37,100 nt of DNA, taken from contig CALAIW010000028.1 of assembly GCA_937922705.1 (NCBI GenBank), positions 1-37,100 on the forward strand, read 5' to 3'. Under the pieces are notes generated by a model, which saw nothing but the letters and a program-made list of their open reading frames with translations, did no database searches and was not told where the DNA came from. Every line of letters starts with the position of its first letter. The stretch's first letter is position 1. Positions 1 to 32,780 of this stretch are shown here, one piece after another. The translations under genes were made by a program, and so were the position numbers. This DNA comes from an uncultured bacterium. Lineage in GTDB: Bacteria; Atribacterota; Atribacteria; Atribacterales; Caldatribacteriaceae.

Positions 1-403
1 CTTCATCAATCTTTTGGATAAATACTTCAGTCCCCTGGTATTGTCGCAAATTCCTCCGAGCATGGAACACAGCTCCTTCAAAGAAAGAAAAGGCGAGAAA
101 GAGACGTTTCTGAGGATCGAGATAATGTTCAACCTGGCGAATTAAAAGCTCTCCGGACACGTTTTTCTGGCGGGGGAGAAAAGCACCATTGTAAAAACCA
201 TGGTAGTTGTAAAACTGAATCACTACATTGTGTTGAACAAGAAAAACGAGTATTTCCTGGTTGAGAGTTATCGGTCCGAAAACATGGAGATCTTCAATAT
301 CTTCAATGGGGACAACCTTACGGCTTCCATCCTCCTTTTCCACGAGAGTGGTATTTCCGTCCCGCTTTATTCTTCCACTGCTAAAGACATAATATGAACG
401 CAT
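1..403 (-). CDS. cas1: CRISPR integrase Cas1, N-terminal part (runs off the window)
   Basis: Cas1 is the integrase that, with Cas2, inserts new spacers into the CRISPR array. Reading the minus strand from ATG at 403 gives 134 codons without a stop up to the window edge. The visible part has the Cas1 N-terminal beta-rich domain: a start of MRSYYVFSSGRI, a segment IEDIEDLHVFGPITLN, then NVVIQFYNYHGFYNGAFLPR and QVEHYLDPQKRL. These match the usual I-B Cas1 N-terminus, in which the first domain ends with a 'GxY.G.F.PR' stretch. The catalytic Glu/His/Asp residues lie beyond the window. The start is 5 bases after the cas4 stop, so the gene is co-transcribed with cas4. Identity is confident from the sequence and position; the intactness of the rest is unknown. 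Confidence 0.9.
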   Translation of the reverse strand, partial: MRSYYVFSSGRIKRDGNTTLVEKEDGSRKVVPIEDIEDLHVFGPITLNQEILVFLVQHNVVIQFYNYHGFYNGAFLPRQKNVSGELLIRQVEHYLDPQKRLFLAFSFFEGAVFHARRNLRQYQGTEVFIQKIDE

Positions 404-408
404 AGGGT

Positions 409-921
409 TTACCCAAAACAGAACTCGGAATAGACACACCGAACACAATAAAGCTTGCGCTCAGCCTTTGGCAGGGAGGAAGCTTTTAAGATCTTTCCAA
501 TCTCCCGTACGGCTTCCTCTATCTCCTGAACCATCACCTCGGTAAGGACAACCCCTTTTCGCTTTCGGAGGCGAGGATATAAGAGTACCCCCTCCCGCTC
601 TATCCCAAGACCCCTCAAGTAGTAGAGGTAGTAGCCAACCTGCATGGTGCTTGCTTTTCCCATGGCTTTGCTGTGCTTTACTTCCTGCACCAAGTTGTCA
701 AGGATATCAATAGAAATTAAGTCATCGATAGTGATATGCCTTCTTCGCTCTCGAGGATAGCTCTCCTCACCCAGGATTTTGCCCAAGAGAACTCGTTCGG
801 AATGTTGTTCCATTGACAATCCTCGATCAAAGAGCCAAAGCTTTCGGGGGCATACAAAGAAGTAGTTTACCCTAACCCCGGTAAGGTGAAGACTTTCTAG
901 GGCTTCTAAGAAATTGTTCAT
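409..921 (-). CDS. cas4: CRISPR adaptation exonuclease Cas4
   Basis: Cas4 is a PD-(D/E)XK nuclease with a [4Fe-4S] cluster that trims prespacers and selects their PAM before integration. Four Cys are placed as expected: Cys24 in VCPRKLWL and Cys159, Cys162 and Cys168 near the C-terminus (CVRC...FC). A nuclease core is visible in the DDLISIDILD and QEVKHSK segments. I chose the ATG at 921, which overlaps the cas3 stop in an ATGA junction, giving 170 residues, a normal Cas4 length. An ATG 15 bases upstream (936) would add five residues inside cas3. cas1 follows after 5 bases. The gene sits in the adaptation half of the operon. Family call is confident. Confidence 0.92.
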   Translation of the reverse strand: MNNFLEALESLHLTGVRVNYFFVCPRKLWLFDRGLSMEQHSERVLLGKILGEESYPRERRRHITIDDLISIDILDNLVQEVKHSKAMGKASTMQVGYYLYYLRGLGIEREGVLLYPRLRKRKGVVLTEVMVQEIEEAVREIGKILKASSLPKAERKLYCVRCVYSEFCFG

Positions 922-3176: not shown

Positions 3177-3871
3177 AGAGGAAACCCCTCACTATCTACA
3201 GGGATATCCTGTACAATCGATCTCCCTTTCTGCACGTAAAAGACAGGGATTAACTCAAAGACTCGCAAACATAGTCCTTTAGCAGAATTTCTTTTAGTTC
3301 CTTTTCCTCCTTCTTTCTTGCAATAGTAGCTTGGGAGAAAATAATGTATGCCGCGCAGATCGTAAGTCTTCGCCTGGACTACAGGTACATAAGCATCAAA
3401 GGGCAGCGCTAATCCTCCCTCTGGCGAGCTCTCAGAACAAAAAACAGTTTCTTCCACCTCATTTACCTTAAGCTCAGTAACTAAGTCCTCTGGACGCCCC
3501 AGGTAGGGAAAATAGGGAGGGTTTTGTAACGCCGTTAAAAGTCTCTTGTGCCAATCTATAGTTGGCATTTTTACGTGTATTATTAAAAAGGGCTTCACCA
3601 AGGAAGTGACTATTATCGGATAGATTTTCCCTTCCCGCTTCTTTTTTTCATACTTATGAAAACTTACATATTCCCTCAACACTCCTTCATAGCGACCCTG
3701 AACAGACAAGTTGATCCCCCAAAGAGCTTCTCTTAAACCCAGCATATTATGGAGGAATCCAATGATCGTAGAATAGGGAGGTAAAGGATACGTCTCGATG
3801 ACTTCCATAGAGTAAGGTGTTCTATACACTGCTTTGTCCTGTTTGACTTCAATTTTAAGAATCATGCCCAT
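3158..3871 (-). CDS. cas5: Cascade subunit Cas5 (Cas5b/Cas5t type)
   Basis: Cas5 is the RAMP-fold subunit that caps the 5' handle of crRNA in the type I Cascade complex. The 237-residue protein begins with the typical beta strand MILKIEVKQDKAVYRTPY followed by the family hallmark ETYPLPPYSTIIGFLHNMLGL, in which the 'PP.ST..G.l' glycine-containing helix start is conserved in Cas5. The start may be the ATG at 3871 or the one two codons later (3865); both overlap the cas7 end. The stop lies 19 bases inside cas3. Its place between cas7 and cas3 is the usual I-B order. There is no sign of the catalytic Cas5d variant, and a dedicated cas6 gene is present in this operon. Confidence 0.9.
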   Translation of the reverse strand: MGMILKIEVKQDKAVYRTPYSMEVIETYPLPPYSTIIGFLHNMLGLREALWGINLSVQGRYEGVLREYVSFHKYEKKKREGKIYPIIVTSLVKPFLIIHVKMPTIDWHKRLLTALQNPPYFPYLGRPEDLVTELKVNEVEETVFCSESSPEGGLALPFDAYVPVVQAKTYDLRGIHYFLPSYYCKKEGGKGTKRNSAKGLCLRVFELIPVFYVQKGRSIVQDIPVDSEGFPLWWMTS

Positions 3872-4853
3872 CGTTGAAAGCCCCTTCTACATCCTTTTTT
3901 AGTGCTTCGATGGCCTCAAAGGGAGACTGGTTCCAGTCTTCCTCGTTTCCAAATTCTCCCTTTTGGATACCTATCTTGGTGTAGTCCCTGACTTTCCTGC
4001 TTGCTGAAGATTTTGATTCCTTGTCCGGTATTATCACCTCAAGTACCTGTTCGATACTCTCTCGGTTGATGCAAGCTTTGGAGCCGCGCCAGTAAATATT
4101 GACTGCGTTGTGGAAAAAGAGCGACTTTATAGGATAAACGCCTCCGACTACAAAAAGAGGATGGAGATCTTCTCTGCGACCCCTGATATCTCGGTAGAGA
4201 AACTTTATCGCATCCAAGAGATCTTTTACTCTTTTGATTTTTTCCGCTTTGTCAAGGTGAATACCAAAATTCTCATCTTCACCAACTCTGTCGAGATCCA
4301 CCGCCAAGGTGTACTTGTAGTAACCATAACCTGTTTCAATGTTTGCCAGATTTGGATCCACAGATTTTACGTCATTAGAATCCTTGCCATTAGAAGATGG
4401 CCCTCCAAGTTCCTGCCTCTTCTGAGACGTCAACCTGTCGGCAAAACCCTTATTATTGAGAAACTCTTGGTCTCCGTAGTAAGCCTCAAGAGAGATAAGA
4501 TGTGTCAACCGAGCTACAGCACTTCTCGTTCTGGTATTTCCAACCGTGATCATGTAACCAAAAAGATCGGCTTCCTCGAAATAGTATTCCTTTTTCTCTA
4601 ACGGGGTGGGGTCGAGCTGAATAACCTTTTTGTTTCCCTCACCAGCTTCGTGCAAAACAGCTCTCTTCCAGTTGGCATTTTCAAAACACCACCCGGCGAT
4701 ACTGTAGCGAATTGACTGTCTGGAGGCAAAAAGGTACGTTTCACCATTTCCCCGGTGCACCTTTTTCGCTACCGCTATATTACCGTACCCCTCATCGTAG
4801 TTTAACGGAAAAGCCTTTACTATAACAGTCAAAGTTAACGCTCTTTTCTCCAT
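3855..4853 (-). CDS. cas7: Cascade backbone subunit Cas7 (Cst2/DevR family)
   Basis: Cas7 polymerises along crRNA to form the Cascade backbone. This 332-residue protein carries features of the Cst2/DevR branch: an N-terminal RAMP strand (ALTLTVIVKAFPLNYDEGYG), the segment EEADLFGYM followed by the RTRSAVARLTHLISLEAYYGD region, and a C-terminal PIKSLFFHNAVNIYWRG stretch. Together with the CXXC-type Cas8 upstream this points to the Tneap variant of subtype I-B. The start ATG at 4853 lies one base after the cst1 stop. The C-terminus overlaps the cas5 start by 17 bases. Nothing looks damaged. Confidence 0.92.
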   Translation of the reverse strand: MEKRALTLTVIVKAFPLNYDEGYGNIAVAKKVHRGNGETYLFASRQSIRYSIAGWCFENANWKRAVLHEAGEGNKKVIQLDPTPLEKKEYYFEEADLFGYMITVGNTRTRSAVARLTHLISLEAYYGDQEFLNNKGFADRLTSQKRQELGGPSSNGKDSNDVKSVDPNLANIETGYGYYKYTLAVDLDRVGEDENFGIHLDKAEKIKRVKDLLDAIKFLYRDIRGRREDLHPLFVVGGVYPIKSLFFHNAVNIYWRGSKACINRESIEQVLEVIIPDKESKSSASRKVRDYTKIGIQKGEFGNEEDWNQSPFEAIEALKKDVEGAFNDGHDS

Positions 4854-4854
4854 A

Positions 4855-5193
4855 TCACGAGACCTCCTCTGTTTGATTTTCTACCTCGGGTTGAGGCTGG
4901 CTCTCCACTGAGCTCAAAAGTCCAGTGATAAACGCCAATGCCTTCTCCTGAAAGGAGACAACTTCACTCTCGTAAATGAGATCGCCCACTGCTTCAGGTA
5001 TCGGTTTTTCATGGACTACATACAATCTCAAGAGTTCATTACAGAAATCCTCTTTCCTTGCTCCTCGGGCAAGCGATAAAAATCGTTGCGCAAGGTGGAA
5101 ACGTCTTTTGGAATCAATCTCTTTCATGGAGAAACTGGAAGCACCGCAATCTCGAATTTTTCGAAGAATACCGTAAATTTCTCTGCTACCCAA
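4855..5193 (-). CDS. Predicted Cas11-like small subunit from an internal start in cst1
   Basis: In types I-B, I-C and I-D the Cascade small subunit (Cas11) is known to be translated from an internal start inside the large-subunit gene. Here no separate cas11 gene exists. Within cst1 the minus strand reads AGGAGGTGA at 5207-5199, a nine-base match to the anti-SD of 16S rRNA, and 8 bases after AGGAGG stands an in-frame TTG (5193-5191, Leu473 of cst1). Translation from it gives 112 residues (MGSREIYGILRK...), mostly helical and basic in the first half (RKIRD, SKRR, ARGARKED), which suits a Cas11 fold. The SD and the frame are seen; the product and its role are inferred from the precedent. Confidence 0.6.
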   Translation of the reverse strand: MGSREIYGILRKIRDCGASSFSMKEIDSKRRFHLAQRFLSLARGARKEDFCNELLRLYVVHEKPIPEAVGDLIYESEVVSFQEKALAFITGLLSSVESQPQPEVENQTEEVS

Positions 5194-6609
5194 TGTACTC
5201 ACCTCCTGAGAATCGGTCCTTTTTTTACGAAGCACAAAATCGAGTACAATCATTGACCAAAGAGGGCAAAGACGTGAATCGTGTCTACTGATTTTTTCAG
5301 CAAGATATCTGAAAGCAAGGGGTACAATGGATTGTTTTTGGATAAGCCTTTTCAAGACTTCAGTAGAGAGGTAGATATTGACATTTTTACTTATTTCATA
5401 ACGGAAAGATAGAACGTCAATCAGTTTTTTGAAGTCGCCGAATTCTTCAACGACCTCGGCAAAGGCTCGTTCCAGGTTAAAGTAAACAAAGCGAGGTTTA
5501 TCCTGATTTTTCCTTGCCGAGGTTTTTATTTCGACAAAAAGGATATTTTCTAAGGTCCACCGTACCTTTCTCTCCACAACCCCAAGGACTATCTCCAAAG
5601 TGCGGAAGTAGGGGTTAAAAGGTCTTTGTTCCGCCGTAAAAATTTTTAAATTCACTTCCTGCATAGAACTATTCAGCCGGTTATTAATCCGATAGGCTTC
5701 CTCTACATGGGGATAGTTAACAAAGAGGTACTCTGTTTCGTCAATTTCACTTATCTGCCATGGTTTCCTATTAAACCCGGCGAAAGCACACAAAAGGATC
5801 AACTGACACAGTGGGCACTTCACTGGATGCGAAACACCGTCACTGGTGTAGAAAGAATACACATTATCAAATTCATTTTTGCTTATCCCCAAGGACGAAA
5901 AATCCCCTTCAGTAAGTTCAGAAAAGGACTCTAAATCCTGGTATTTGTGACCACAGAGAAAGCAGGTGTATTCTCCGTCCTGGGAAAGGTTAGCGTTCAA
6001 AAAGCAAAGGTATTTTTTGTCGAATTTCTCAACCCTTTGGGGTCTCTTGCCTTTTGGATTAGCTATGACATCTTTGTTGAAGTAGAATCGCCCTAAGTAA
6101 TCAGAGGCCTTTTTTGTTGTCGTCAATTCACTCAGGAACTCTGAAAAATCATCCAATTCTATTCCCAATCGAGTTGCTGAAACACCGAGGTTCTGCAAAA
6201 CCTCGCTTAAATTCTTCTTACCTCCCTCTAAAATATCCTCTACGTGTTCTATAAACCGTTGCCAACCTTCTCTCGCCTCAAGGGCAAAAATCTTTTGCCT
6301 GATCTCCTGATCAATGTTTTTAAGTTCCGTTCTGACCTGCCTTTCTCCCTCCTCACCTAACTGTTTCTTCACCTTATTCTGATTGTACTTCAGGAACGAA
6401 AGTAGATTGAAGCTCTCCTGTAAGTAAAGCTTGGTTGCGTAAGCAAAATAAAGAAAACCAAAGTCGTAAAGGGCTTCTCGGGCTATTCTAACGCCATCCT
6501 CGGTAAACTCATAACTATTACTCCGCTTACCGAAATCAAGAATGCGGAGCAATCCCACCACACCCGCGTTGTACAGCCAATTTCCCGGATACAGCACAAT
6601 CTCATCCAC
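4855..6609 (-). CDS. cas8b1: Cascade large subunit Cas8b1/Cst1 (CXXC-CXXC family)
   Basis: The large Cascade subunit recognises the PAM and recruits Cas3. The 584-residue protein has the two zinc-finger-like pairs that name the Cst1 family: Cys216/Cys219 (CFLC) and Cys265/Cys268 (CPLC). The N-terminus MDEIVLYPGNWLYNAGVVGLL is the usual Cst1 opening. The start is a GTG at 6609 that overlaps the cas6 stop by 8 bases, with a GAGGTGG sequence just upstream. The last 112 residues form a helical domain preceded, inside the gene, by a strong SD sequence, so this region is probably also made as a separate small subunit (see the nested entry at 4855-5193). The tail is acidic and polar and may be disordered. 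Confidence 0.9.
   Translation of the reverse strand: MDEIVLYPGNWLYNAGVVGLLRILDFGKRSNSYEFTEDGVRIAREALYDFGFLYFAYATKLYLQESFNLLSFLKYNQNKVKKQLGEEGERQVRTELKNIDQEIRQKIFALEAREGWQRFIEHVEDILEGGKKNLSEVLQNLGVSATRLGIELDDFSEFLSELTTTKKASDYLGRFYFNKDVIANPKGKRPQRVEKFDKKYLCFLNANLSQDGEYTCFLCGHKYQDLESFSELTEGDFSSLGISKNEFDNVYSFYTSDGVSHPVKCPLCQLILLCAFAGFNRKPWQISEIDETEYLFVNYPHVEEAYRINNRLNSSMQEVNLKIFTAEQRPFNPYFRTLEIVLGVVERKVRWTLENILFVEIKTSARKNQDKPRFVYFNLERAFAEVVEEFGDFKKLIDVLSFRYEISKNVNIYLSTEVLKRLIQKQSIVPLAFRYLAEKISRHDSRLCPLWSMIVLDFVLRKKRTDSQEVSTLGSREIYGILRKIRDCGASSFSMKEIDSKRRFHLAQRFLSLARGARKEDFCNELLRLYVVHEKPIPEAVGDLIYESEVVSFQEKALAFITGLLSSVESQPQPEVENQTEEVS
5199..5207 (-). promoter_or_regulatory. Internal ribosome binding site within cst1
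   Basis: The minus strand reads AGGAGGTGA, followed by GTACA and TTG. It is among the longest SD matches in the window, yet it lies in the middle of a coding region, 8 bases before an in-frame start codon. It would drive separate production of the cst1 C-terminal domain. Confidence 0.6.
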
Positions 6610-7366
6610 TGCCTACCACCTCAAGCATTCCAAAACCCTGGGCTCGACGACGGCCAAGGCCAAGGACCTGGATGTCATAGAGATCCTGAGGATCTCCACG
6701 GAGAAGAAATTCTCCGCTGAAACAGGTGAAGGTGTACACCCGGGATTCTCGTTCCCCCTCCCTTATAGCATGTTTTACCACTTCCTTTCGGATTTTTAAT
6801 GGTTCGAATCCAAGTTCCTGCGCAAGGCCCTTACCCCGTACTCCCAAAAGCATGGCATCGGCATAGTAATTGAGTTCTCGCAAGAAAGCCTGGGGGTCCT
6901 CATCTGGGAGAAGGGGCTTTTGCGAATCGTCTTCGATAAGGACCGGTGCAAGAGTACGGAAGCGAACCTCATCCTTCAGGATTTTTTTCTCTCGAAGGGG
7001 AAGAATGCGCACCGGTCGAGGAAGCACAAACTCTCCCTTGCAAAAGGGATAGACCGTTTCCTGGAGAAGACCATTGTAAAAGTCGACCAAAAGTCCAGCC
7101 TCGAAAACGGAGAAGTACAAAAAGAGAGGAGAAGTCAGGTACAGCCATTCCTGTTCCTGGGCAAAACGCTCTCTGTCATGGGCAAAACGGACTGCGAAAC
7201 AGAAGGGTTTGGGCGCTTTGTTTTTCCGGTGGCCATAGAAAAAGAGTGCGTGAAAACGCCTCTCTCCCGAAGGTGTTGCCTGCAAAACCTCTTTGAGGAA
7301 GCTCATGAAGGCATTGCGGTATAGGAGAGGCACCCGTTCGACTTTGAAAACAACCTGTAACCGCAA
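6602..7366 (-). CDS. cas6: pre-crRNA endoribonuclease Cas6
   Basis: Cas6 cuts the CRISPR transcript within each repeat to give mature crRNAs. The 254-residue protein has the tandem RAMP layout: an N-terminal strand RLQVVFKVERVPLLYRNAFMSFLK and the C-terminal glycine-rich loop GLGRRRAQGFGML typical of Cas6. His residues near the N-terminus (RRFHALFF, YGHRK) are candidates for catalysis, but the catalytic residue cannot be fixed by eye. The start is a TTG at 7366, supported by AGGAGG at 7376-7381 with 9 bases of spacing. The stop overlaps the cst1 start. It lies 48 bases downstream of the WYL regulator and heads the structural cas genes. Confidence 0.88.
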   Translation of the reverse strand: MRLQVVFKVERVPLLYRNAFMSFLKEVLQATPSGERRFHALFFYGHRKNKAPKPFCFAVRFAHDRERFAQEQEWLYLTSPLFLYFSVFEAGLLVDFYNGLLQETVYPFCKGEFVLPRPVRILPLREKKILKDEVRFRTLAPVLIEDDSQKPLLPDEDPQAFLRELNYYADAMLLGVRGKGLAQELGFEPLKIRKEVVKHAIREGERESRVYTFTCFSGEFLLRGDPQDLYDIQVLGLGRRRAQGFGMLEVVGSG

Positions 7367-7407
7367 ATCTCTATCCCTCCTCTCTACCTCCGATTGTACA
7401 CTTATGG

Positions 7408-7426
7408 AATGACACTACATGTCACT
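7408..7426. promoter_or_regulatory. Possible operator: imperfect inverted repeat between the regulator and cas6
   Basis: The plus strand holds AATGACA-CTACA-TGTCACT: five perfect pairs (TGACA/TGTCA), one mismatch and one more pair, around a 5-base centre. It covers the stop codon of the WYL regulator and sits about 45 bases before the cas6 start. It could be a binding site for the regulator or a weak RNA stem. The match is short and could be chance. Confidence 0.25.
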
Positions 7427-8425
7427 CTGAAAGTACTGTGCAAACATTTTTTGCACCTCTTTTCTCACCTCCTCACGAAGTGCAGGGGGACTAACAATCT
7501 CTGCGTGGCTTCCATATCCGATGACCCACCTTTTAACCTCTTCCGGATTTGCCTCCACCTCAAAGAGGAGACCCCCGTCGGGAAGCTCGGTAATTTTCTG
7601 CGTGGGGTGCCAGATGCGTTCTCGAATCCACCGGGCCTGGTAAGCATCGAAACGTACCACCACTTTGCATACCTTTCCCCGAAACATGCGAAAAGCTTGA
7701 GAAAGATACTTCTGAGGATCAAAGTCTGGAGGAATTGTGAATCCCTCAGGGAGAATAGTAACCTCTTCTATCCGGTCCAGGGCAAAATCCCTTAACTCCC
7801 CTCGGAGACGACAAAAACCACAGAGATACCAGATGCCCTCAAAATTGTAGAGATGGTAAGGTTCGACATCCCGGATTGTTTTCTCGCCTGAGGAAATAGA
7901 TTGATAGGTGATACGAATCCTTTTTCTCCGTTGAATGGCTTCAAAGAGAGCCCCGAAGACCTTGCTAACCTCCACCCGGGGACGAAGAACCAAAACGAAA
8001 GGAGAGAGCATCATTGCAAGATGTTCTGGAGTCGTTTTGAAAGGAGAAGGGAGGAATTTTTCCAACTTTTTACGAAGACTCTGAAGAGGGGCTTCCAGAG
8101 GAGTATTGGCAAACTGCCTGAGGACGCTAACTAGGATGAACAATGAAAGTACTTCGCCTTCCGTAAGCTCAGGGAATGGAAAGACCCAATGCTCAGTGAA
8201 AAAATATCCTCCCCTTTTACGATCAAAAGCAATGGGGGCTCCAAAATCGTCTTTCAGCATTTCAAGGTAACGGTATACCGTACGGCGACTTACCTCAAGA
8301 AGGTTTGCCAGACGATCTATATCTGGAAAAGAACCCTCTTGTATTTCCTGAGTAAGACAGTACAAGCGGAACAGAAGCGAGCGCTTTGCTGGAGATGCAA
8401 AAAACTTTTCCAAATGCTCAACCAT
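7415..8425 (-). CDS. HTH-WYL transcription regulator heading the cas operon
   Basis: This 336-residue protein has an N-terminal helix-turn-helix (RLANLLEVSRRTVYRYLEML, roughly residues 35-55) followed by a WYL domain (ITYQSISSGEKTIRDVEPY, then NFEGIWYLCGFCR, roughly 175-215) and the WYL C-terminal extension. WYL proteins are ligand-sensing regulators and several repress CRISPR-Cas operons in other bacteria. The gene lies directly upstream of cas6 in the same direction, so it may be the first gene of the operon and control it and itself. I chose ATG at 8425: a plausible promoter (-35 AGTCTA complement at 8483-8488, -10 at 8460-8465) would place the transcript start near 8453, so the in-frame TTG at 8458 would lie at or before the transcript start. 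Confidence 0.85.
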   Translation of the reverse strand: MVEHLEKFFASPAKRSLLFRLYCLTQEIQEGSFPDIDRLANLLEVSRRTVYRYLEMLKDDFGAPIAFDRKRGGYFFTEHWVFPFPELTEGEVLSLFILVSVLRQFANTPLEAPLQSLRKKLEKFLPSPFKTTPEHLAMMLSPFVLVLRPRVEVSKVFGALFEAIQRRKRIRITYQSISSGEKTIRDVEPYHLYNFEGIWYLCGFCRLRGELRDFALDRIEEVTILPEGFTIPPDFDPQKYLSQAFRMFRGKVCKVVVRFDAYQARWIRERIWHPTQKITELPDGGLLFEVEANPEEVKRWVIGYGSHAEIVSPPALREEVRKEVQKMFAQYFQSDM

Positions 8426-8459
8426 CCCCCCTTTGCTTTTTGCAATCCATCTAGACAAC

Positions 8460-8488
8460 TATATACCACAAGTAAAAAGAGCAGTCTA
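8460..8488 (-). promoter_or_regulatory. Probable promoter of the WYL regulator / cas operon
   Basis: On the minus strand TAGACT (8488-8483) is followed after 17 bases by TATATA (8465-8460). Each box matches four of six consensus positions. It lies about 35 bases upstream of the ATG chosen for the regulator. Confidence 0.45.
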
Positions 8489-8513
8489 CTCGACTCTCCA
8501 GAGCACAAACCCT

Positions 8514-8543
8514 TTGACCAAGACGACGCAGAAGGAGTACTAT
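8514..8543 (+). promoter_or_regulatory. Probable promoter of the secreted protein gene
   Basis: TTGACC at 8514-8519 and TACTAT at 8538-8543 are separated by 18 bases. The predicted transcript would start near 8550, about 33 bases before the ATG at 8583. It is divergent from the promoter of the WYL regulator. Confidence 0.4.
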
Positions 8544-8582
8544 GGTAATGGACTTCTTGAGAAAAATTCTCGATTGGAGGGG

Positions 8583-9251
8583 ATGCGTGTGCTCTGGAGA
8601 GTTTCGTTTCTTCTCTTGCTTCTTGGGGTAATGTGTTCTTTTGCCTTCTCCCAGGATTTCAGTGGCGAAGCTTCTATTGCTTTTGCACCCTTTACTGAGG
8701 AATTGGAATCGATTCTTGAATCTGACCAAGGCACAGCAGGAGGTATTGTCTTCTACTACCTTCCCCTGAAACGCCTCGTGGTGGGATACCGCGTGAGTAT
8801 CGTGGAGCCACCAGAGAACTCGGTTTCCCCAGGGTACTGGACTCGGGATTCCCGCTACCCGTATCCCGTCTACTTTGCCGACTACCAAGCCCAGTACGTT
8901 CCAGATACCCAGCACACCACCTACACTCAGGCCAATCCTCAGAGTTTGACCCTGAAAGGCCTTGTTTCGGGAAAGTCCTACCACGTCGTGGTGACACCCC
9001 TCTGCATTTGGCCCAAGTCCCCCCACAACCTCGATGAAAAGGGGAAACCTTTCTTCTACTGCTGGCTTCGGGCTAAAACCTTTGGTTGGGTTTACCAAGA
9101 TGGATCAGGCTGGGGCCTGGTGATGGCCTCTGGTCCGGGAGGAGAAGCAAAACGTGGCTACTTTGAGGTCAACCGGGTGGTTTTTGAGGGAACAGTTCAG
9201 GCGAAAAAGTCCTCCTTCCAGCCAGGAACCGGACAGGAGTCGGCAATTTAG
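8583..9251 (+). CDS. Secreted protein of unknown function
   Basis: I do not recognise a family. Starting at ATG 8583 the 222-residue product opens with a clear signal peptide: MRVLWR, a hydrophobic core VSFLLLLLGVMCSFAFS and probable cleavage before Gln24. The mature part is rich in Tyr, Pro and Gly, lacks further membrane segments, and contains a segment SLTLKGLVSGKSYHVVVTP that resembles the later strands of a fibronectin type III-like beta sandwich. GGAGG stands 2 bases before the ATG, unusually close; an in-frame TTG nine bases upstream would place it worse. The gene has its own likely promoter and is single, convergent with the DUF362 gene. An extracytoplasmic location is well supported; a role is not. 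Confidence 0.7.
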   Translation: MRVLWRVSFLLLLLGVMCSFAFSQDFSGEASIAFAPFTEELESILESDQGTAGGIVFYYLPLKRLVVGYRVSIVEPPENSVSPGYWTRDSRYPYPVYFADYQAQYVPDTQHTTYTQANPQSLTLKGLVSGKSYHVVVTPLCIWPKSPHNLDEKGKPFFYCWLRAKTFGWVYQDGSGWGLVMASGPGGEAKRGYFEVNRVVFEGTVQAKKSSFQPGTGQESAI

Positions 9252-9277
9252 GCGTTTGAGAGAAAAGCAAAGCCAAA

Positions 9278-10390
9278 TCACATCTCCTCAAGGACGTACT
9301 CCTTATTCCCTAAGCCGAGCTCTGCGGCATAGTCAATTTGCCGCTGCCATAAAGCTGTAGGATGCACGGCAAGGAATTTGTCCTCTCCTGGCAAAAGGGG
9401 CCTCCCAAGTTTTGAATGTGCTAGACCTTCGGCTCTCTGTACCAGGTCCCCAGAGGCTTGGTCAATGGCGACAATGTCTGTGGAGCCCAGAATCCCGATA
9501 TCAGGAACAAGGCTCGCGTCATGCCAAGGGGCACAATCACAATCGGGGCTGATATCGAGGAGAAAGTTCACGAAGACTGCTTTCTCCCTCTTCCCCTTGA
9601 GTACCCCAAAAGCATACTCCACCATCCGTTCCTGGAGGATTTCGCTTTTTGCTGACCAGGAGGCATCGATAGCCCCCGTGGGACAGTAAAGAAGGCACTC
9701 AGCGCAGCCAATGCAAAGCTCTGGATTGACCTTGGCCTTGCCATGGGCATCAAGAAAGAGGGCTTTTGGAGGACAATGGACGATACACCGTTCACAACCG
9801 ATGCACTTTTCCTCATTGGGCGCAGGAAGGAATGTCCCCCCATGTTGCATCTGTTTCCCTATTCGGGAAGCACAACCCATGCCTACATTTTTTAAGGCTC
9901 CACCAAGCCCTGCCTCAATATGCCCCTTGACATGGGTGAGAACAAAGAGGAAGTCGGCTTCCAGAATCGCCGAAGCAATGGAGACCCGGCTAAAGTGCTT
10001 GAGGGCAACCTCGACCCACTCGTGGTCCTTACCCCGGAGTCCATCGGCGATAACAACCGGGGCAGGAACGGAGGGGTAACCAAATCCATGAAACAGCGCT
10101 GTTTCAAGGTGATCTACAGCGTTGTGCCGAAACCCAGTATAGAGGGTATTCGTGTCGGTAAGAAAGGGTTTTCCACCCATATCCCGAATGACCTCAACAA
10201 TGGCTCGAACGAATATCGGTCTTATAAAGCCGTGATTGCCCCGCTCCCCAAAATGGAGCTTTACTGCCACAAGGTCTCCCGAGGAAAGTCTTCCCTCAAG
10301 GAGCCTCTGCGCACATCTTTTCAAGCGGCTTATGACCGTATTGTGCTCATTTTCTGCTCTGAGACCCACAAAGTACACTGTCGAAGCCAT
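9278..10390 (-). CDS. DUF362 protein with two [4Fe-4S] ferredoxin motifs
   Basis: The 370-residue protein has a DUF362 domain (VAVKLHFGERGNHGFIRP at about 41-58, then TDTNTLYTGFRHNAVDH, then LTHVKGHIEAGLGGALKNVG at 151-170), interrupted by a bacterial ferredoxin insert with two CxxCxxCxxxC motifs: Cys196/199/202/206 and Cys226/229/232/236. DUF362 proteins are widespread in anaerobes and their reaction is not established; electron transfer is the natural guess from the clusters. I chose ATG at 10390, with AAAGGGGG about 7 bases upstream, rather than the start 48 bases further out. It is a single gene and points away from the fluoride riboswitch unit. Confidence 0.85.
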   Translation of the reverse strand: MASTVYFVGLRAENEHNTVISRLKRCAQRLLEGRLSSGDLVAVKLHFGERGNHGFIRPIFVRAIVEVIRDMGGKPFLTDTNTLYTGFRHNAVDHLETALFHGFGYPSVPAPVVIADGLRGKDHEWVEVALKHFSRVSIASAILEADFLFVLTHVKGHIEAGLGGALKNVGMGCASRIGKQMQHGGTFLPAPNEEKCIGCERCIVHCPPKALFLDAHGKAKVNPELCIGCAECLLYCPTGAIDASWSAKSEILQERMVEYAFGVLKGKREKAVFVNFLLDISPDCDCAPWHDASLVPDIGILGSTDIVAIDQASGDLVQRAEGLAHSKLGRPLLPGEDKFLAVHPTALWQRQIDYAAELGLGNKEYVLEEM

Positions 10391-10541
10391 AGCAAAGCCC
10401 CCTTTCAAGCGCCAGAGAAAACCTTTTGCGGCAATCAATTAACCGAAATTGTATATGTCTTTATACCACATTCTATGTGATTTTGCAGCAAATCCCCAAG
10501 GCCAGTTCCCAAAATAAAGACCTAGCATCAAGCTCAAGGAA

Positions 10542-10570
10542 TTGCAATTTGACTAGAGGGGTGGTATAAT
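10542..10570 (+). promoter_or_regulatory. Promoter of the fluoride riboswitch unit
   Basis: A perfect -10 box TATAAT at 10565-10570 follows TTGCAA at 10542-10547 with a 17-base spacer. A TTGACT at 10549-10554 is too close to serve. The transcript would begin near 10577, eight bases before the riboswitch. Confidence 0.65.
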
Positions 10571-10583
10571 ACTACAAAACTTT

Positions 10584-10650
10584 AGGGGATGAAGCTCCCC
10601 TGGGGTTAGGACCCAAACCGCCCATTAAGGGCTGATGGCTTCTACGAAAG
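10584..10650 (+). ncRNA. Fluoride (crcB-type) riboswitch aptamer
   Basis: Fluoride riboswitches turn on genes when the ion binds. The sequence matches the core of the known Thermotoga petrophila aptamer: P1 AGGG/CCCT (10584-10587 with 10598-10601) enclosing GATGAAGC; then AAAC; then the stem GCCC/GGGC (10620-10623 with 10629-10632, loop ATTAA); then the conserved TGATGGCTTCTACG. The pseudoknot GAAGC (10591-10595) with GCTTC (10638-10642) is complementary over five bases. One difference is an insert of about 13 bases before AAAC that can itself fold as GGGT/ACCC. The 3' part of the aptamer overlaps the arm of an intrinsic terminator, the usual ON-switch design. No covariance search was possible. 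Confidence 0.85.
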
Positions 10651-10674
10651 CGTAGAGCTATCAGCCCTTTTTTT
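10629..10674 (+). terminator. Riboswitch-controlled intrinsic terminator
   Basis: GGGCTGAT (10629-10636) pairs with ATCAGCCC (10660-10667), and the stem continues inward through GGCT/AGCT and CTACG/CGTAG with one bulge, closing on an AAAG loop. Seven T follow (10668-10674). The 5' arm includes the bases needed for the aptamer pseudoknot (10638-10642), so the two folds exclude each other: without fluoride the stem forms and stops transcription. Confidence 0.85.
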
Positions 10675-10697
10675 ATGGGCAAGGGAGGCGCATCTTT

Positions 10698-12242
10698 GTG
10701 GGGTTTACAAGCATTCTCTTCCCTGACAGCATAGGGGCAGGTAGCATATCTTGGGAACCTCCCAAACCAGAGTACTTCGCCGATCTAAACCTTGACCAAA
10801 TCGTTCGGGGGTGCACCCTTGGTCGAGAAGAGTACCACCTTATCCCCTTCTTCTACTTACCCCTACAAAATGGCGATACCGTGCGTTTCCGCCAGGAAGT
10901 TACAAGAGACCTCGAAGAAAATGAACCGCTCAGGCAAAGCATTCAAGCATTCGCCCAAAAAATGCAGAAGGTACGGATGTACCGGTCTCTTGCGGAGAAG
11001 CTCTACTATAAGTTGAACAAGGAAGGGTGGTTCCTAGAAGCCATTGATACGTATTGTGACGCTGTTTTGCAACTTACCGAAGAGCTTCTCCATCTTCCTC
11101 TCTCTTCTTGCGGCTTTCTTGCCTTTCGAGAGTACCTTTCCCACCACGTTCAGTCACCCTCCTTTGTAGCCTTGCGAGAGGGGGTAAAAAACCTGAAAAG
11201 GGCTTTGCAATCCATAAAATACTGCATCCAGATAAACGGTCTTCGGGTAAAAGTGCGCCATTACGAAGAGGAAACCGACTACAGTGCCGTGATTGAAGCA
11301 ATCTTTGCCAGATTTCGACAGGAAGCCTCCCAGGATTACAGAGTTCAGTACCATACCGGTGTCGATATGAACCATGTTGAAGCAAAGATTGCAGAGGGGG
11401 TAGCTCAACTTTTCCCCGAAGTATTCTCGAATTTGGAGAAGTACTGCGCAGAGAACGCCAATTTCCTAGATGCAAAGATTGTCGCTTTCGACCGAGAGAT
11501 ACAATTCTATATGGCATACCTTGAGTACATTGCTCCACTCAAAAAGAGAGGACTAAAGTTTTGCTATCCTGAAATATCCTCAAATCCTGAAGGAATCTAT
11601 GGACATGAGGTGTTTGACCTTGCTCTCGCCTATAGTCTCCTTGCTGAGGGGAAAACACCGGTTTGCAACGACTTTTTCCTCCAGGGGCAGGAACGAATTT
11701 TTCTCGTTTCTGGTCCAAACCAGAGTGGCAAGACGACTTTTGCCCGAACCTTTGGACAACTGCACTACCTTGCAAGTTTAGGACTCCCCGTTCCGGGAAG
11801 CTCAGCACGTCTTTTGCTTCCCGATCGCATCTTCACCCATTTCGAACGAGAAGAGGACATCACTACCCTTCGGGGGAAACTCGAGGATGACCTGGTGCGA
11901 ATGCACGTTATGCTCACCCAAGCAACCTCAAAAAGCGTTCTCATTATCAACGAAGCCTTCAACTCCACCGCACTGCACGATGCCATTTTCCTCAGTACCG
12001 AGATTATGCAAAAGATTCTGCAACTTGGGGCAGTATGTGTTTGGGTCACTTTCGTTATAGAACTGGCCTTCCTTGACCCGGAACGGATAGTAAGCCTGGT
12101 GAGTACAGTTCACCCAGATAACCCTGAAACACGGACGTACAAGATTCTTAGGAAAGCGCCTGATGGTCTGGCCTTCGCCCTCTCTCTTGCTAGGAAGTAT
12201 CGGCTCACTCGGGAGGCAATAAAGGAGCGCATACGGACATGA
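10698..12242 (+). CDS. MutS-like ATPase, first of a tandem pair
   Basis: The 514-residue protein has an all-helical core resembling the MutS lever/clamp region and a C-terminal MutS-type ABC ATPase. Walker A is GPNQSGKTT (339-347). The THFEREEDITTLRGKLEDDL stretch (about 382-401) corresponds to the MutS ABC-signature region. Walker B reads SVLIINEAF with Asn418-Glu419 where MutS has Asp-Glu. There is no N-terminal mismatch-recognition domain (no FxE), so it is not a canonical mismatch repair MutS. The start is GTG at 10698 with GGGAGG 9 bases upstream. It is the first gene after the fluoride riboswitch and overlaps the next gene by 4 bases (ATGA), suggesting a heterodimer. Function is unknown; the family call is confident. 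Confidence 0.8.
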   Translation: MGFTSILFPDSIGAGSISWEPPKPEYFADLNLDQIVRGCTLGREEYHLIPFFYLPLQNGDTVRFRQEVTRDLEENEPLRQSIQAFAQKMQKVRMYRSLAEKLYYKLNKEGWFLEAIDTYCDAVLQLTEELLHLPLSSCGFLAFREYLSHHVQSPSFVALREGVKNLKRALQSIKYCIQINGLRVKVRHYEEETDYSAVIEAIFARFRQEASQDYRVQYHTGVDMNHVEAKIAEGVAQLFPEVFSNLEKYCAENANFLDAKIVAFDREIQFYMAYLEYIAPLKKRGLKFCYPEISSNPEGIYGHEVFDLALAYSLLAEGKTPVCNDFFLQGQERIFLVSGPNQSGKTTFARTFGQLHYLASLGLPVPGSSARLLLPDRIFTHFEREEDITTLRGKLEDDLVRMHVMLTQATSKSVLIINEAFNSTALHDAIFLSTEIMQKILQLGAVCVWVTFVIELAFLDPERIVSLVSTVHPDNPETRTYKILRKAPDGLAFALSLARKYRLTREAIKERIRT

Positions 12243-13795
12243 GGGTTTTTCTGCTCTTTCAGGACCGGGATTTTACGCCTTCGGGAAAGCGTTCTTCCCT
12301 GGTCGATGACCTTGTGAAGGACTTAGAGCTTGAAGTCCTCCTGCGCGCTATGGCCTGTGGGGATGAGCATCTTTTTAAAGTTGCAAAAGAAGTCCTTCTC
12401 GCAGGTCTCGACGATCCTGAAACCATTCTCTATCGGCAGGATATCCTCAGGGATTGCCTGAAGCATGTATCTCTCGTGAGGAGAATGTACGACATATCTG
12501 TACAGGCAATTGAAGCAAAGAGGAAAGCTTCATTTGCAGGGATATTCTCTCGTTACCCTTCATCGATTCTCGCAGGAGCCGTACGAATTCTCCAACCCCT
12601 TGTGGACATGCTTGAAGATCTCCGACACATTGCGGATGAGTACGTCCATGAATTTGAGTCCAAAGGGTTTACACGGTTTTGTACCATGCTTCAGAGCGAG
12701 TTACCAGATACATACCTTGCCGCTGTCAGAGAATGCTTGCACGATTTAGAGTTTACGAAAGGCGTTCTTATCAGTGCTGAGTTGCAGCATGGATGTGTGG
12801 GCAACAATTACCTTCTCCGAAAGCCTCCTGCCAAGAAAGGCTGGATTTCCAGGATGTGGCAGAAAAGGCTCCCAGGGTACTCCTTCTCTGTCGACCCTCG
12901 AGATGAAGGCGGCGCGAGAGCTCTCTCTGAACTTAAGGATAGAGGGGTGAATTCTGCAGCGAATGCCCTTGCTCAATCTGTGGACCATGTTGTGCATTTC
13001 TTTGAAACACTCCACCAGGAACTCGCCTTTTATCTGGGATGTTTAAACCTTTATGAGCAGCTTTCCGCACTTGGAGAACCAGTGTGCTTCCCCTTACCCT
13101 TCCCTCCTCACGAAAGAAAGCACTTTGTCCGGGGACTCTACGATCCCTGCCTTGCACTCACAATACAGAGAAAGGTTGTAGGAAACGACATCTATGCTGA
13201 CGGTAAAGACCTGGTTATTATCACTGGCGCAAATCAAGGGGGAAAATCGACGTTTCTGCGCAGCATTGGTATCGCCCAGCTTGCGATGCAATGTGGCATG
13301 TTTGTTCCTGCTGAGGTTTTCCAAGCTAACATTTGTCGAGGGATTTTTACGCATTTCAGGAGAAAAGAGGATGTAACGCTGCGAAGTGGGAAACTCGATG
13401 AGGAACTCAAAAGAATGAGTGACATCGTTGACGAAGTTGTGCCAAATTCGCTCATCCTCTGCAACGAGTCTTTTGAGTCCACAAATGAACGGGAAGGTTC
13501 CGAAATTGCCCGAAACATCCTCGATGCATTCCTGGAAAGACGCATCAAGGTTTTCTTCGTGACCCATCACTATGAGCTTGCCCACAGTTTCTACATTCAG
13601 CGAAAAAACAACGTCCATTTCCTACGAGCTGAGAGAAAAAGCAATGGAGAACGAACCTTTAAAGTTATAGAAGGAGAACCATTGCGAACAAGTTACGGTG
13701 AAGACTTGTACCAAAAGATTTTCAAAGACTCAGAAACTCCTGTCCCCAAAGTGGAAGGTGTGCCTCGTGAGCAGGTTGCGCATACTGCGCCTTAA
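12239..13795 (+). CDS. MutS-like ATPase, second of a tandem pair
   Basis: The 518-residue protein is a distant paralogue of the preceding one. It has the same layout: a helical N-terminal two thirds, Walker A GANQGGKST (330-338), the segment GIFTHFRRKEDVTLRSGKLDEEL (about residues 363-385) parallel to that of its neighbour, Walker B SLILCNESF with Asn409-Glu410, and a His switch (VTHHYELAH). The last residues are Pro-rich and probably flexible. Both proteins keep the catalytic Glu but replace the preceding Asp by Asn, so this is likely a family trait rather than damage. The ATGA junction implies coupled translation. Loss of the DNA mismatch domain argues for a different DNA or RNA transaction; which one cannot be said. 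Confidence 0.8.
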   Translation: MRVFLLFQDRDFTPSGKRSSLVDDLVKDLELEVLLRAMACGDEHLFKVAKEVLLAGLDDPETILYRQDILRDCLKHVSLVRRMYDISVQAIEAKRKASFAGIFSRYPSSILAGAVRILQPLVDMLEDLRHIADEYVHEFESKGFTRFCTMLQSELPDTYLAAVRECLHDLEFTKGVLISAELQHGCVGNNYLLRKPPAKKGWISRMWQKRLPGYSFSVDPRDEGGARALSELKDRGVNSAANALAQSVDHVVHFFETLHQELAFYLGCLNLYEQLSALGEPVCFPLPFPPHERKHFVRGLYDPCLALTIQRKVVGNDIYADGKDLVIITGANQGGKSTFLRSIGIAQLAMQCGMFVPAEVFQANICRGIFTHFRRKEDVTLRSGKLDEELKRMSDIVDEVVPNSLILCNESFESTNEREGSEIARNILDAFLERRIKVFFVTHHYELAHSFYIQRKNNVHFLRAERKSNGERTFKVIEGEPLRTSYGEDLYQKIFKDSETPVPKVEGVPREQVAHTAP

Positions 13796-13876
13796 AAGCT
13801 GTAACCTTGGAACCGACAACCTGGGGTATTCAGGGATTTCCCTTCTTAGCCCTTGAAGTAAGAGGAGGAATGGGCC

Positions 13877-15664
13877 GTGCGTCAAGAAACACCTCTTCAG
13901 GAAACAGGAAACCTTGAGAACCTCTTTGAGGAAATTCTCCAAGAACTTTCAAAACTCGGGTCGGAGTTTGAGAGTGAAAAGATAAGTATAGAAAACCTCA
14001 GAGAGCGTCTTCAAAAGGAACGTTTTCATCTTGCCGTTCTTGGACAGTTCAAGCGAGGAAAAAGCACCTTTATTAACGCTCTTCTTGGAGAAGAGATACT
14101 TCCTGTGGCAGTTCTACCCCTTACCGCTTTGCCCATTTTCCTTTCTTTTGGCTCCCAGCCACGTGCCCAGGTTCTTCTTGAGAATGGCGTTAAGGAATGG
14201 AGTGGTGAGGACCCTGAGGCTTTAAGAGAATTTCTCTCCCAATTTGTCGCCGAAACGGAAAACCCAGAGAATCGTAAGGGCGTTCTTCAGGTTGAGGTTT
14301 TTTACCCCTCCCCACTTTTGCAACATGGGGTAGTACTCATTGATACTCCTGGGATTGGCTCAACGCTCCGCCACAACACGGAAGTTACCTTGAACTTTCT
14401 TCCCCAGTGTGATGCTGCTTTGTTCTTAGTCTCTGCTGATCCCCCAATCACTGAGGTGGAAGTCGCATTCCTGCAAGCGGTACGTTCTAGGGTAGCACGC
14501 CTTTTCTTTGTCCTCAATAAAATTGACTACCTCTCTGAGACGGACATAGCTTCTGTGCACGACTTCTTGAGAGAGGTGCTTCGCGAGAGAGCGGGTTTTG
14601 AGAATCCCCTTATATTTCCTGTTTCAGCTCGCATGGCTTTAGAAGGGCAGAAAAGGGGTGATAGAGTACTCCTTGAACGCAGTGGAATCCACAAGATTTT
14701 GCAGCACCTTTTAAGTTTCCTGCAGAAAGAGAAAAGCCATGCTCTCCGGGAAGCTCTGATGAGGAAAGCCATTGAGGTCTTAAATGAGCTTTCGATGCAT
14801 TTGCGTCTTTGTATTCGCTCTCTTGAAATGCCTATTCACGACCTTGATGAGCGCTTGCAGATCTTTTCTGAAAAGGTTAGGGAGGCAGAAAGAGAACGGA
14901 TACACATGGGAGACCTTCTCCTTGGTGAGAGGAAAAGAATGATAGCCTTTCTTGAGGAATGGGCTGAGAACCTTCGTCAAGGGGCACGAGAACACTTTCG
15001 AAGTATACTCAAGGAACATCTTGCAGATAGAGCCGAGAATCCTGAAGCACGCATTCAAGAAGTTTTCGACAGAGAAGTTCCTGCTTTCTTTGAGCGTGAA
15101 CTCTCTAAGGTAGTACGTGTCTTCGAGACCAAGGTCACTGAAGCTCTTAAGCCTTATGAACAAAGAATACACGAGCTCACCGAGGCAGTGAGAAAGAAAG
15201 CTGCAGAACTTTTTGACATTCCCTGCTATGTTTCCAGGAGTTCAGAGGTATTTGCTGTGGAAAAGAAACCGTACTGGGTCACCCATAAGTGGTATACCCA
15301 TTTCCACCTACTCCCCGAAGGTTTTCTTGCAACCCTCCTCCCAGAAAAAACTCGCCGTGCGAAGCTACGCCAAAGAATGGAAAAGGAAATCGAGGAACTG
15401 GTCACCACGAACGTCGAGAACCTTCGCTGGGCTACTCTTCAAAACCTCGACCAAACCTTTCGCCAGTTTGTCGCCACCATTAACGAACACCTGGAACGAA
15501 CCGTTTCTGCTACCCAAGGGGCTATAGAACGAGTTCGATCCAAAAAGGCAGAAGAGAGCCAGAACGTAGCTTGGGAACTTGAAAAGCTTCGGAGAGCTCT
15601 CAAGAGATTGCAGGCTCTGCAGGAACAGCTTTCCATGGGGCATAATTTGGAAAACACTTCCTAA
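13877..15664 (+). CDS. Dynamin-like GTPase
   Basis: The 595-residue protein has a dynamin-type G domain: G1 GQFKRGKST (56-64), a likely G2 Thr in PLTALP (about residue 83), G3 DTPG (156-159), G4 NKID (214-217). It is followed by long helical, heavily charged segments (about 290-430 and 480-590) that fit the stalk of bacterial dynamin-like proteins. I see no long hydrophobic segment; the stretch HFHLLPEGFLATLLPEK near residue 475-490 could be a small membrane-touching loop. The GTG start at 13877 is backed by AGGAGG 8 bases upstream. The gene begins 81 bases after the MutS-like pair, with no terminator or convincing promoter between, so it may share the fluoride-controlled transcript. Bacterial dynamins act in membrane remodelling or stress; the role here is unknown. 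Confidence 0.85.
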   Translation: MRQETPLQETGNLENLFEEILQELSKLGSEFESEKISIENLRERLQKERFHLAVLGQFKRGKSTFINALLGEEILPVAVLPLTALPIFLSFGSQPRAQVLLENGVKEWSGEDPEALREFLSQFVAETENPENRKGVLQVEVFYPSPLLQHGVVLIDTPGIGSTLRHNTEVTLNFLPQCDAALFLVSADPPITEVEVAFLQAVRSRVARLFFVLNKIDYLSETDIASVHDFLREVLRERAGFENPLIFPVSARMALEGQKRGDRVLLERSGIHKILQHLLSFLQKEKSHALREALMRKAIEVLNELSMHLRLCIRSLEMPIHDLDERLQIFSEKVREAERERIHMGDLLLGERKRMIAFLEEWAENLRQGAREHFRSILKEHLADRAENPEARIQEVFDREVPAFFERELSKVVRVFETKVTEALKPYEQRIHELTEAVRKKAAELFDIPCYVSRSSEVFAVEKKPYWVTHKWYTHFHLLPEGFLATLLPEKTRRAKLRQRMEKEIEELVTTNVENLRWATLQNLDQTFRQFVATINEHLERTVSATQGAIERVRSKKAEESQNVAWELEKLRRALKRLQALQEQLSMGHNLENTS

Positions 15665-32561: not shown

Positions 32562-32599
32562 ATATACACCTCCTTATCGCCCGTAAGTCGGTGTACTTC

Positions 32600-32744
32600 G
32601 ATACAGGCAGGTCTCCTGGCTTGAAGGTCCAAACCTACTCGGCTCGCCTTCCCAGCGTAACACCAGTGGCAGATTGAGCCTTTCGTCCCTTCTCACAGTG
32701 GCGGGACCGCGCCGGATTCGCACCGGCTTCCCTACACCTGTATC
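32600..32744 (-). ncRNA. Cobalamin riboswitch
   Basis: On the minus strand the leader of cbiM contains the full B12-sensing set: P1 GATACAGG (32744-32737) pairing with CCTGTATC (32607-32600), then GGGAAGCCGGTGCGAATCC, GGTCCCGCCACTGTGA, and the B12 box GCCAGGAGACCTGCC. The folded core is thus complete. No T run follows. Downstream, TACACC (32595-32590) can pair with GGTGTA (32570-32565), which covers the end of the cbiM SD, so control is probably at translation initiation, possibly with effects on transcript stability for the whole operon. Confidence 0.95.
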
Positions 32745-32751
32745 GGGAATC

Positions 32752-32780
32752 ACTGTATACCAAAAGAGGTACTCTGTCAA
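32752..32780 (-). promoter_or_regulatory. Promoter of the B12 operon
   Basis: On the minus strand a perfect TTGACA (32780-32775) is followed, after 17 bases, by TACAGT (32757-32752); TATACA two bases earlier is an alternative -10 with a shorter spacer. The transcript would begin near 32745, right at the riboswitch P1. Confidence 0.65.

What the first reader, a model, noticed from the sequence alone, without database searches (positions are those of the whole stretch)
10542..15664. Fluoride riboswitch driving a MutS-like ATPase pair and a dynamin-like GTPase
Seen: promoter, aptamer with matching P1, stem and 5-base pseudoknot, overlapping terminator with seven T, then two overlapping MutS-like genes and, after 81 bases with no terminator, a dynamin-like GTPase. 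Known: fluoride riboswitches usually control CrcB/Fluc or CLC-F exporters; MutS-like genes were among the associations noted when the crcB motif was first described, as far as I recall. Inference: fluoride induces a non-exporter response built from NTPases. Fluoride with Mg, Al or Be mimics phosphate in NTPases, so the proteins may protect or repair a fluoride-sensitive process. The three-gene composition seems undescribed.
Basis: partly seen in the sequence, partly recalled or inferred. Interest (0 to 1): 0.78.

Follow-up and report, generated by a model that had tools for sequence, protein, structure and literature searches.

The report
Fluoride-switched MutS-like pair plus dynamin
A fluoride-sensing RNA switch controls two overlapping genes for MutS-like ATPases that are not mismatch-repair proteins, and a dynamin-like GTPase; the same link recurs across many bacterial phyla, which points to a little-known intracellular layer of fluoride defence beyond fluoride pumps.

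Summary
Rfam's fluoride riboswitch scores 54.5 bits at 10576-10651 (gathering 34), with a promoter upstream and an overlapping terminator. It precedes two 4-bp-overlapping MutS-core ATPase genes (A, B) and a true dynamin-like GTPase. The arrangement is conserved in three relatives of this Caldatribacterium-like genome.

A/B is a widespread two-gene family. Of 76 A genes from about 13 phyla, 61 lie under a fluoride riboswitch; in a random Chloroflexota sample, 28/33 genomes with A have one against 63/268 without. A and B lack mismatch, connector, SMR and KOW domains, carry Asn for the Walker-B Asp, and form a clade apart from MutS1, MutS2 and KamC. The genome has no MutS1 and no MutL, so mismatch repair is very unlikely.

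The dynamin is independently fluoride-switched: 21 of 30 Bacillota relatives have the riboswitch upstream, most in genomes without A/B. I found no report of a fluoride-dynamin link in the papers available.

The riboswitch-mutS association itself was published in 2010. Best reading: fluoride induces a heterodimeric remodelling ATPase plus a membrane GTPase. The switch and gene content are shown by sequence; induction by fluoride and the targets are inferred.

The parts
10542..10570 (+). sigma-70-type promoter TTGCAA-N17-TATAAT with TG before the -10
   Evidence: consensus match only
10576..10651 (+). fluoride riboswitch aptamer (RF01734): P1 10585-10588/10597-10600, P3 10620-10623/10629-10632, pseudoknot 10591-10595/10638-10642, with a small extra insert between P1 and P3
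10627..10674 (+). intrinsic terminator hairpin (19 bp) and U7 tract overlapping the aptamer 3' half: expected ON switch with fluoride
   Evidence: and sequence
10698..12242 (+). MutS-like subunit A (514 aa, GTG start): core/lever/clamp plus MutS_V ATPase, Walker B with Asn-Glu (N418 E419)
12239..13795 (+). MutS-like subunit B (518 aa): same architecture, Asn-Glu (N409 E410), positively charged clamp tip
13877..15664 (+). dynamin-like GTPase (595 aa, GTG start): GQFKRGKST, DTPGIGS, NKID

Best explanation
This is a fluoride-inducible intracellular protection operon. Step 1 (RNA shown by sequence, binding inferred): fluoride with Mg binds the aptamer, blocks the overlapping terminator and lets transcription run into A, B and the dynamin gene. 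Step 2 (co-encoding shown, dimer inferred): A and B, made from overlapping genes, assemble as a heterodimeric MutS-core clamp ATPase without mismatch-recognition, SMR or KOW parts. Step 3 (inferred): its ATP cycle opens or releases a macromolecular complex locked by fluoride or Mg-fluoride, as MutS2 uses the same core to split stalled ribosomes and as KamC is annotated as an enzyme reactivase; it is not mismatch repair. Step 4 (inferred): the dynamin GTPase remodels or seals membrane under HF/acid stress. Exporters, antiporters, enolase and pyrophosphatase are the other arms of the same regulon. Likelihoods: fluoride-switched operon about 0.95; dedicated fluoride-stress role of A/B and dynamin about 0.85; A/B a non-repair remodelling ATPase about 0.6; its exact target (ribosome versus fluoride-poisoned Mg enzyme) undecided.
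For: Riboswitch over threshold with covarying helices and pseudoknot. Operon conserved in G003, G004 and G008; G008 has a second riboswitch directly before the dynamin. 61 of 76 A genes in 80 loci lie first (49) or later (12) in a riboswitch-headed same-strand run (earlier count 51 of 76 directly upstream). Random Chloroflexota sample: RF01734 in 28/33 A-positive against 63/268 A-negative genomes, p = 6.6e-12. Negative control: no R2 hit below E 0.27 in 220 kb of MutS1, MutS2, KamC and X-family loci. 26 of 30 dynamins in the A/B loci are in riboswitch-headed runs; 21 of 30 in an independent Bacillota sample, most in genomes lacking A. Neighbours include enolase, CrcB, CLC, PPase and Na/H antiporters. 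No MutS_I and no MutL in the genome. Confident MutS-core models; separate clade. MutS2 ATPase-driven ribosome splitting: PMC10897456.
Against: No expression, binding or phenotype data; heterodimer not modelled. No constant partner gene beside A/B names a substrate. A few A/B loci have no riboswitch found nearby (G257, G289, several of L112-L138). The Asn-Glu Walker B also occurs in the X family, whose five loci show no riboswitch, so it is not a fluoride adaptation. The top-80 set was chosen by similarity to A. Dynamin co-transcription over the 81-base gap is inferred.
Confidence: 0.6

Rival explanations
1. A/B is a MutS2-like ribosome rescue ATPase: fluoride arrests translation and the heterodimer splits stalled ribosomes. 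(A specific form of the best explanation.)
For: Same core/lever/clamp/ATPase layout; the MutS2 core gives the best target-normalised structural match (7vuf, TMt 0.65). The MutS2 ATPase core, not SMR, is its critical splitting part (PMC10897456). B's clamp tip is positively charged, +8.4 per 100 aa.
Against: A/B lacks the KOW and SMR domains that recruit MutS2 to collided ribosomes; A/B forms a clade apart from MutS2; no link to translation genes seen.
Confidence: 0.25
2. A/B is a reactivase for a fluoride-poisoned Mg enzyme such as enolase or pyrophosphatase, pulling out the tightly bound Mg-F-phosphate. (Another specific form of the best explanation.)
For: Enolase sits in 20 of 80 A/B loci and PPase in 7, many in riboswitch-headed runs. 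A MutS-core protein, KamC, is annotated as a lysine 5,6-aminomutase reactivase (NCBIfam NF052383).
Against: KamC groups with MutS2, not with A/B; enolase is absent from most A/B loci and is often in a different transcription unit; no physical evidence.
Confidence: 0.2
3. A/B works on DNA (mismatch, recombination or fluoride-linked DNA damage repair), as first suggested for mutS under the crcB motif.
For: MutS ancestry; MSH4-MSH5-like heterodimers also lack domain I (own knowledge); Weinberg 2010 suggested DNA damage.
Against: No mismatch or connector domain; no MutS1 or MutL in the genome; neighbours are ion transport and glycolysis, not DNA repair.
Confidence: 0.12
4. The dynamin is a Leo-type antiphage or general stress gene that only happens to lie downstream.
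For: PADLOC LeoA model, 75.5 bits; a type I-B CRISPR cluster lies a few kb upstream.
Against: Independent riboswitches directly before related dynamins: 10 of 30 genes in A/B loci are first after a riboswitch, and 21 of 30 Bacillota loci have one within 1.5 kb; a second riboswitch before the dynamin in G008.
Confidence: 0.08

Closest known systems
Fluoride riboswitch regulon (RF01734; crcB motif; Weinberg 2010 and, from memory, Baker 2012), including mutS associations
   Same: Same RNA, ON-type expression platform, same companions (CrcB, CLC, enolase, PPase, antiporters); mutS was named in 2010 (PMC2864571)
   Different: Shows that 'mutS' is a dedicated two-gene family unlike MutS1, and adds dynamin-like GTPases as recurrent members
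MutS2
   Same: Core/lever/clamp plus ABC ATPase, no domains I and II
   Different: No KOW or SMR, two different subunits, Asn for Walker-B Asp, separate clade
KamC, lysine 5,6-aminomutase reactivase (NF052383)
   Same: Short MutS-core ATPase of similar length, annotated as a non-DNA reactivase
   Different: 29 and 70 bits against a cut-off of 300; Asp-Glu Walker B; groups with MutS2; KamB not compared
Enterobacter cloacae FRM GI3 fluoride operon (PMC5533749)
   Same: Riboswitch-controlled enolase, PPase, CrcB, UspA; the Klebsiella plasmid island L202 carries the same enzymes
   Different: The published GI3 table lists no MutS-like or dynamin gene; the Klebsiella plasmid adds riboswitch-antiporter-Usp-A-B
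Bacterial dynamin-like proteins (Nostoc BDLP, IniA, LeoA)
   Same: Dynamin_N GTPase and helical body; best PDB profile hit BDLP 2j68, E 1.5e-38
   Different: Controlled by fluoride riboswitches; some loci add a second dynamin fused to DUF6062

Membership tests
Fluoride riboswitch RF01734 | Score above the gathering threshold over the full model | tested here: met
   54.5 against 34 bits, model 1-64
Fluoride riboswitch RF01734 | P1, P3 and pseudoknot, with covariation in relatives | tested here: met
   97.4% of cells paired, 11 of 13 pairs with a change on both sides
Fluoride riboswitch RF01734 | Fluoride binding and induction of downstream genes | not testable with these tools
   needs in-line probing or RNA-seq
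MutS1 mismatch repair | Mismatch-recognition domain I and connector II | tested here: not met
   only MutS_V found; no MutS_I in the genome
MutS1 mismatch repair | Partner MutL in the genome | tested here: not met
   PF01119 absent, 11 of 14 controls positive
MutS2 | C-terminal KOW and SMR domains | tested here: not met
   proteins end shortly after MutS_V
MutS2 | Falls in the MutS2 clade | tested here: not met
   A, B and X form a separate 100/100 group
MutS superfamily ATPase core | Walker A, catalytic Glu and MutS core fold | tested here: met
   Walker-B Asp replaced by Asn
KamC reactivase | NF052383 above cut-off | tested here: not met
   29.4 and 70 against 300 bits
Dynamin superfamily | Dynamin_N GTPase with G1, G3 and G4 motifs | tested here: met
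   108 bits; motif residues of GQFKRGKST, DTPGIGS and NKID invariant or nearly so
Dynamin superfamily | Membrane binding and nucleotide-dependent assembly | not testable with these tools
   no assay or dynamin model made
Leo antiphage system | LeoA with LeoBC partner genes | tested here: inconclusive
   the dynamin hits LeoA and LeoBC models (75.5 and 48.7 bits) but A and B hit neither

The most novel reading that the evidence does not exclude
A/B is a new class of heterodimeric MutS-core machine that frees a cellular machine or enzyme locked by fluoride, acting with fluoride-switched dynamins that protect membranes: a conserved, non-exporter fluoride-recovery system found across many bacterial phyla and on conjugative plasmids.
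Probability: 0.35. Interest if true: 0.85.

Novelty: new variant of a known kind. Interest (0 to 1): 0.64.

Why it matters
Fluoride resistance is usually explained by export plus overproduction of inhibited enzymes. A consistently paired ATPase and recurrent dynamin GTPases under the same switch indicate a further layer acting inside the cell. The annotation 'DNA mismatch repair protein MutS' on these genes, also on Klebsiella, Burkholderia and Rhodococcus plasmids, is probably wrong in function. The pairing of a known inducer with two genes makes the target directly testable.

Tried and rejected
Mismatch repair: rejected on domain content and absence of MutS1 and MutL. Membership of MutS2 or KamC: rejected by tree and cut-offs. 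Walker-B Asn as a fluoride adaptation: rejected because the X family has it without a riboswitch. A single constant substrate gene beside A/B: not found. Antiphage reading of A/B: no PADLOC hit for A and only weak hits for B. Literature searches for fluoride riboswitch with MutS or dynamin gave only Weinberg 2010 and no dynamin paper; Baker 2012 could not be read. The dynamin structure was not predicted because both jobs went to A and B.
Full report
What is there. The window belongs to a 99.4% complete genome whose closest relatives are Candidatus Caldatribacterium and Atribacteria. At 10576-10651 (+) lies a fluoride riboswitch aptamer: 54.5 bits against a gathering score of 34. A promoter TTGCAA-17-TATAAT ends just before it. 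The aptamer's 3' half is also the 5' arm of a 19-bp terminator hairpin with a U7 tract. This is the layout of an ON switch, although binding was not measured. The genome has one other fluoride riboswitch, before a Na/H-exchanger-family antiporter.

The genes. A (10698-12242) and B (12239-13795) overlap by four bases; the dynamin (13877-15664) follows after 81 bases. At curated thresholds Pfam finds only MutS domain V in A and B; the third gene carries Dynamin_N. AlphaFold models of A and B (mean pLDDT 86.5 and 86.3) match MutS, MutSbeta and MutS2 cores. Domains I and II, KOW and SMR are missing. In 49 A and 47 B sequences, Walker A and the catalytic Glu are kept, but the Walker-B Asp is Asn (alignment to Taq MutS and MutS2). 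E. coli MutS D693N, a Walker-B mutant known from a crystal structure, appears among the hits (3k0s); that this position coordinates Mg is my own knowledge. A single-gene family in Chloroflexota (X) also has Asn-Glu; MutS1, MutS2 and KamC have Asp-Glu. In a tree of the ATPase domain, A, B and X form one group at 100/100, and MutS2 and KamC group together.

Conservation with the riboswitch. Riboswitch, A, B and dynamin recur together in G003, G004 and G008; G008 has a second riboswitch immediately before the dynamin. One scan of a species-level genome collection with A gave 309 relatives; the best 80 loci come from Bacillota, Chloroflexota, Pseudomonadota, Spirochaetota, Desulfobacterota, Actinomycetota, Acidobacteriota, Bacteroidota, Synergistota, Binatota, Acetothermia and two archaeal MAGs (MAG binning may mislead for the archaea). 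With covariance models built here (helices strongly covarying), 61 of 76 A genes lie first or later in a riboswitch-headed same-strand run. The set was chosen by similarity to A, so I drew 301 Chloroflexota genomes: 33 have full-length A, with B adjacent in nearly all. Rfam's own model finds a fluoride riboswitch in 28 of these 33 against 63 of 268 others, p = 6.6e-12. By my reading of the coordinates, nineteen of the 33 have it within about 700 bp upstream on the same strand, and in four it heads a 7.6-kb run of complex-I-like subunits ending in A and B. Loci of MutS1, MutS2, KamC and X gave no credible hit.

Dynamin. Thirty dynamins occur in 22 of the 80 loci; 26 lie in riboswitch-headed runs and 10 are the first gene. 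In Atribacterota of another family, G023 and G024 have riboswitch and dynamin without A/B. In a separate Bacillota sample of 300 genomes, 30 loci with the dynamin profile were fetched with 1.5 kb of flank; by my count have the riboswitch upstream on the same strand. Only 8 of those 30 genomes have A. The dynamin is therefore a fluoride-regulon gene in its own right. Some islands carry a second dynamin fused to DUF6062, and DUF6062 also stands alone behind the riboswitch.

Surroundings. Recurrent neighbours are enolase, CrcB, CLC, Na/H antiporters, PPase, UspA, MFS, metallophosphatase, DUF190 and complex-I-like subunits. The large subunit of those complexes lacks every CxxC in 13 of 13 sequences. 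On a Klebsiella conjugative plasmid the order is riboswitch, antiporter, Usp, A, B, beside CrcB, enolase and a DHHA2-domain (PPase-type) gene.

Mechanism. Shown: the RNA, gene order, domain content, conserved linkage, and absence of MutS1 and MutL from the genome. Inferred: A and B form a heterodimer, their ATP cycle opens or releases something locked by fluoride, and the dynamin acts on membrane. The best-characterised relative without mismatch domains, MutS2, uses this core to split ribosomes (PMC10897456); KamC is annotated as a reactivase. B's clamp tip is positively charged and A's is neutral, compatible with an RNA, ribosome or acidic protein target. I cannot choose between ribosome and enzyme.

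Known and new. Weinberg et al. 2010 already listed mutS with the crcB motif and suggested DNA damage. A 2024 review lists exporters, antiporters, PPase, enolase and formate hydrogenlyase with the switch, and names neither MutS nor dynamin (PMC11139923). New here: the identification of the 'mutS' genes as a dedicated paired family outside mismatch repair, the breadth of the linkage, and the dynamin association, the last with the caveat that Baker et al. 2012 was not readable.

Noticed in passing
L001:1501-1565 (G000:C48:1614-1678): Second fluoride riboswitch of the genome, directly before a Na/H exchanger family (PF00999) gene.
   Followed up: yes
L070, L071, L074, L079, L087, L112, L121, L125, L127, L134, L136, L138 and L143-L146: Complex-I/hydrogenase-like membrane complexes often behind fluoride riboswitches have no CxxC in the large subunit (13 of 13 in the 80 A/B loci), so the 'formate hydrogenlyase' label in the fluoride literature may be wrong; they look like hydrogenase-related complexes without the NiFe site.
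   Followed up: partly
L065:12869-14944, L087:13057-14961, L081:15964-16758, L093:14801-15661: DUF6062 occurs as the C-terminal part of a second fluoride-island dynamin and as a separate gene right behind the riboswitch.
   Followed up: partly
L155-L159: Single-gene MutS-core family X (551-630 aa) with Asn-Glu Walker B, sister to A/B, without a fluoride riboswitch; function unknown.
   Followed up: partly
L202 (Klebsiella pneumoniae plasmid NZ_CP017986.1): Conjugative plasmid with a fluoride island containing the A/B pair annotated as DNA mismatch repair protein MutS; 45 plasmid records carry A.
   Followed up: partly
G000 whole genome: No MutS_I (PF01624) and no MutL (PF01119) match in a 99.4% complete genome, so no canonical mismatch repair.
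   Followed up: yes
window 409-7366 (-): Type I-B CRISPR genes (Cas4, Cas3, Cas5, Cas7, Cas8b1, Cas6) with no repeat array within 1-10600.
   Followed up: partly
window 32589-32756 (-): Cobalamin riboswitch, 111 bits.
   Followed up: no
G005:C6:72418-72657 (L035): Broken remnant of subunit B (45% identity, two stops) in a relative of the same family: the pair can be lost.
   Followed up: no
window 10601-10614; also L011, L013, L014: Small extra insert between P1 and P3 in some Atribacterota aptamers, able to form a short hairpin.
   Followed up: no
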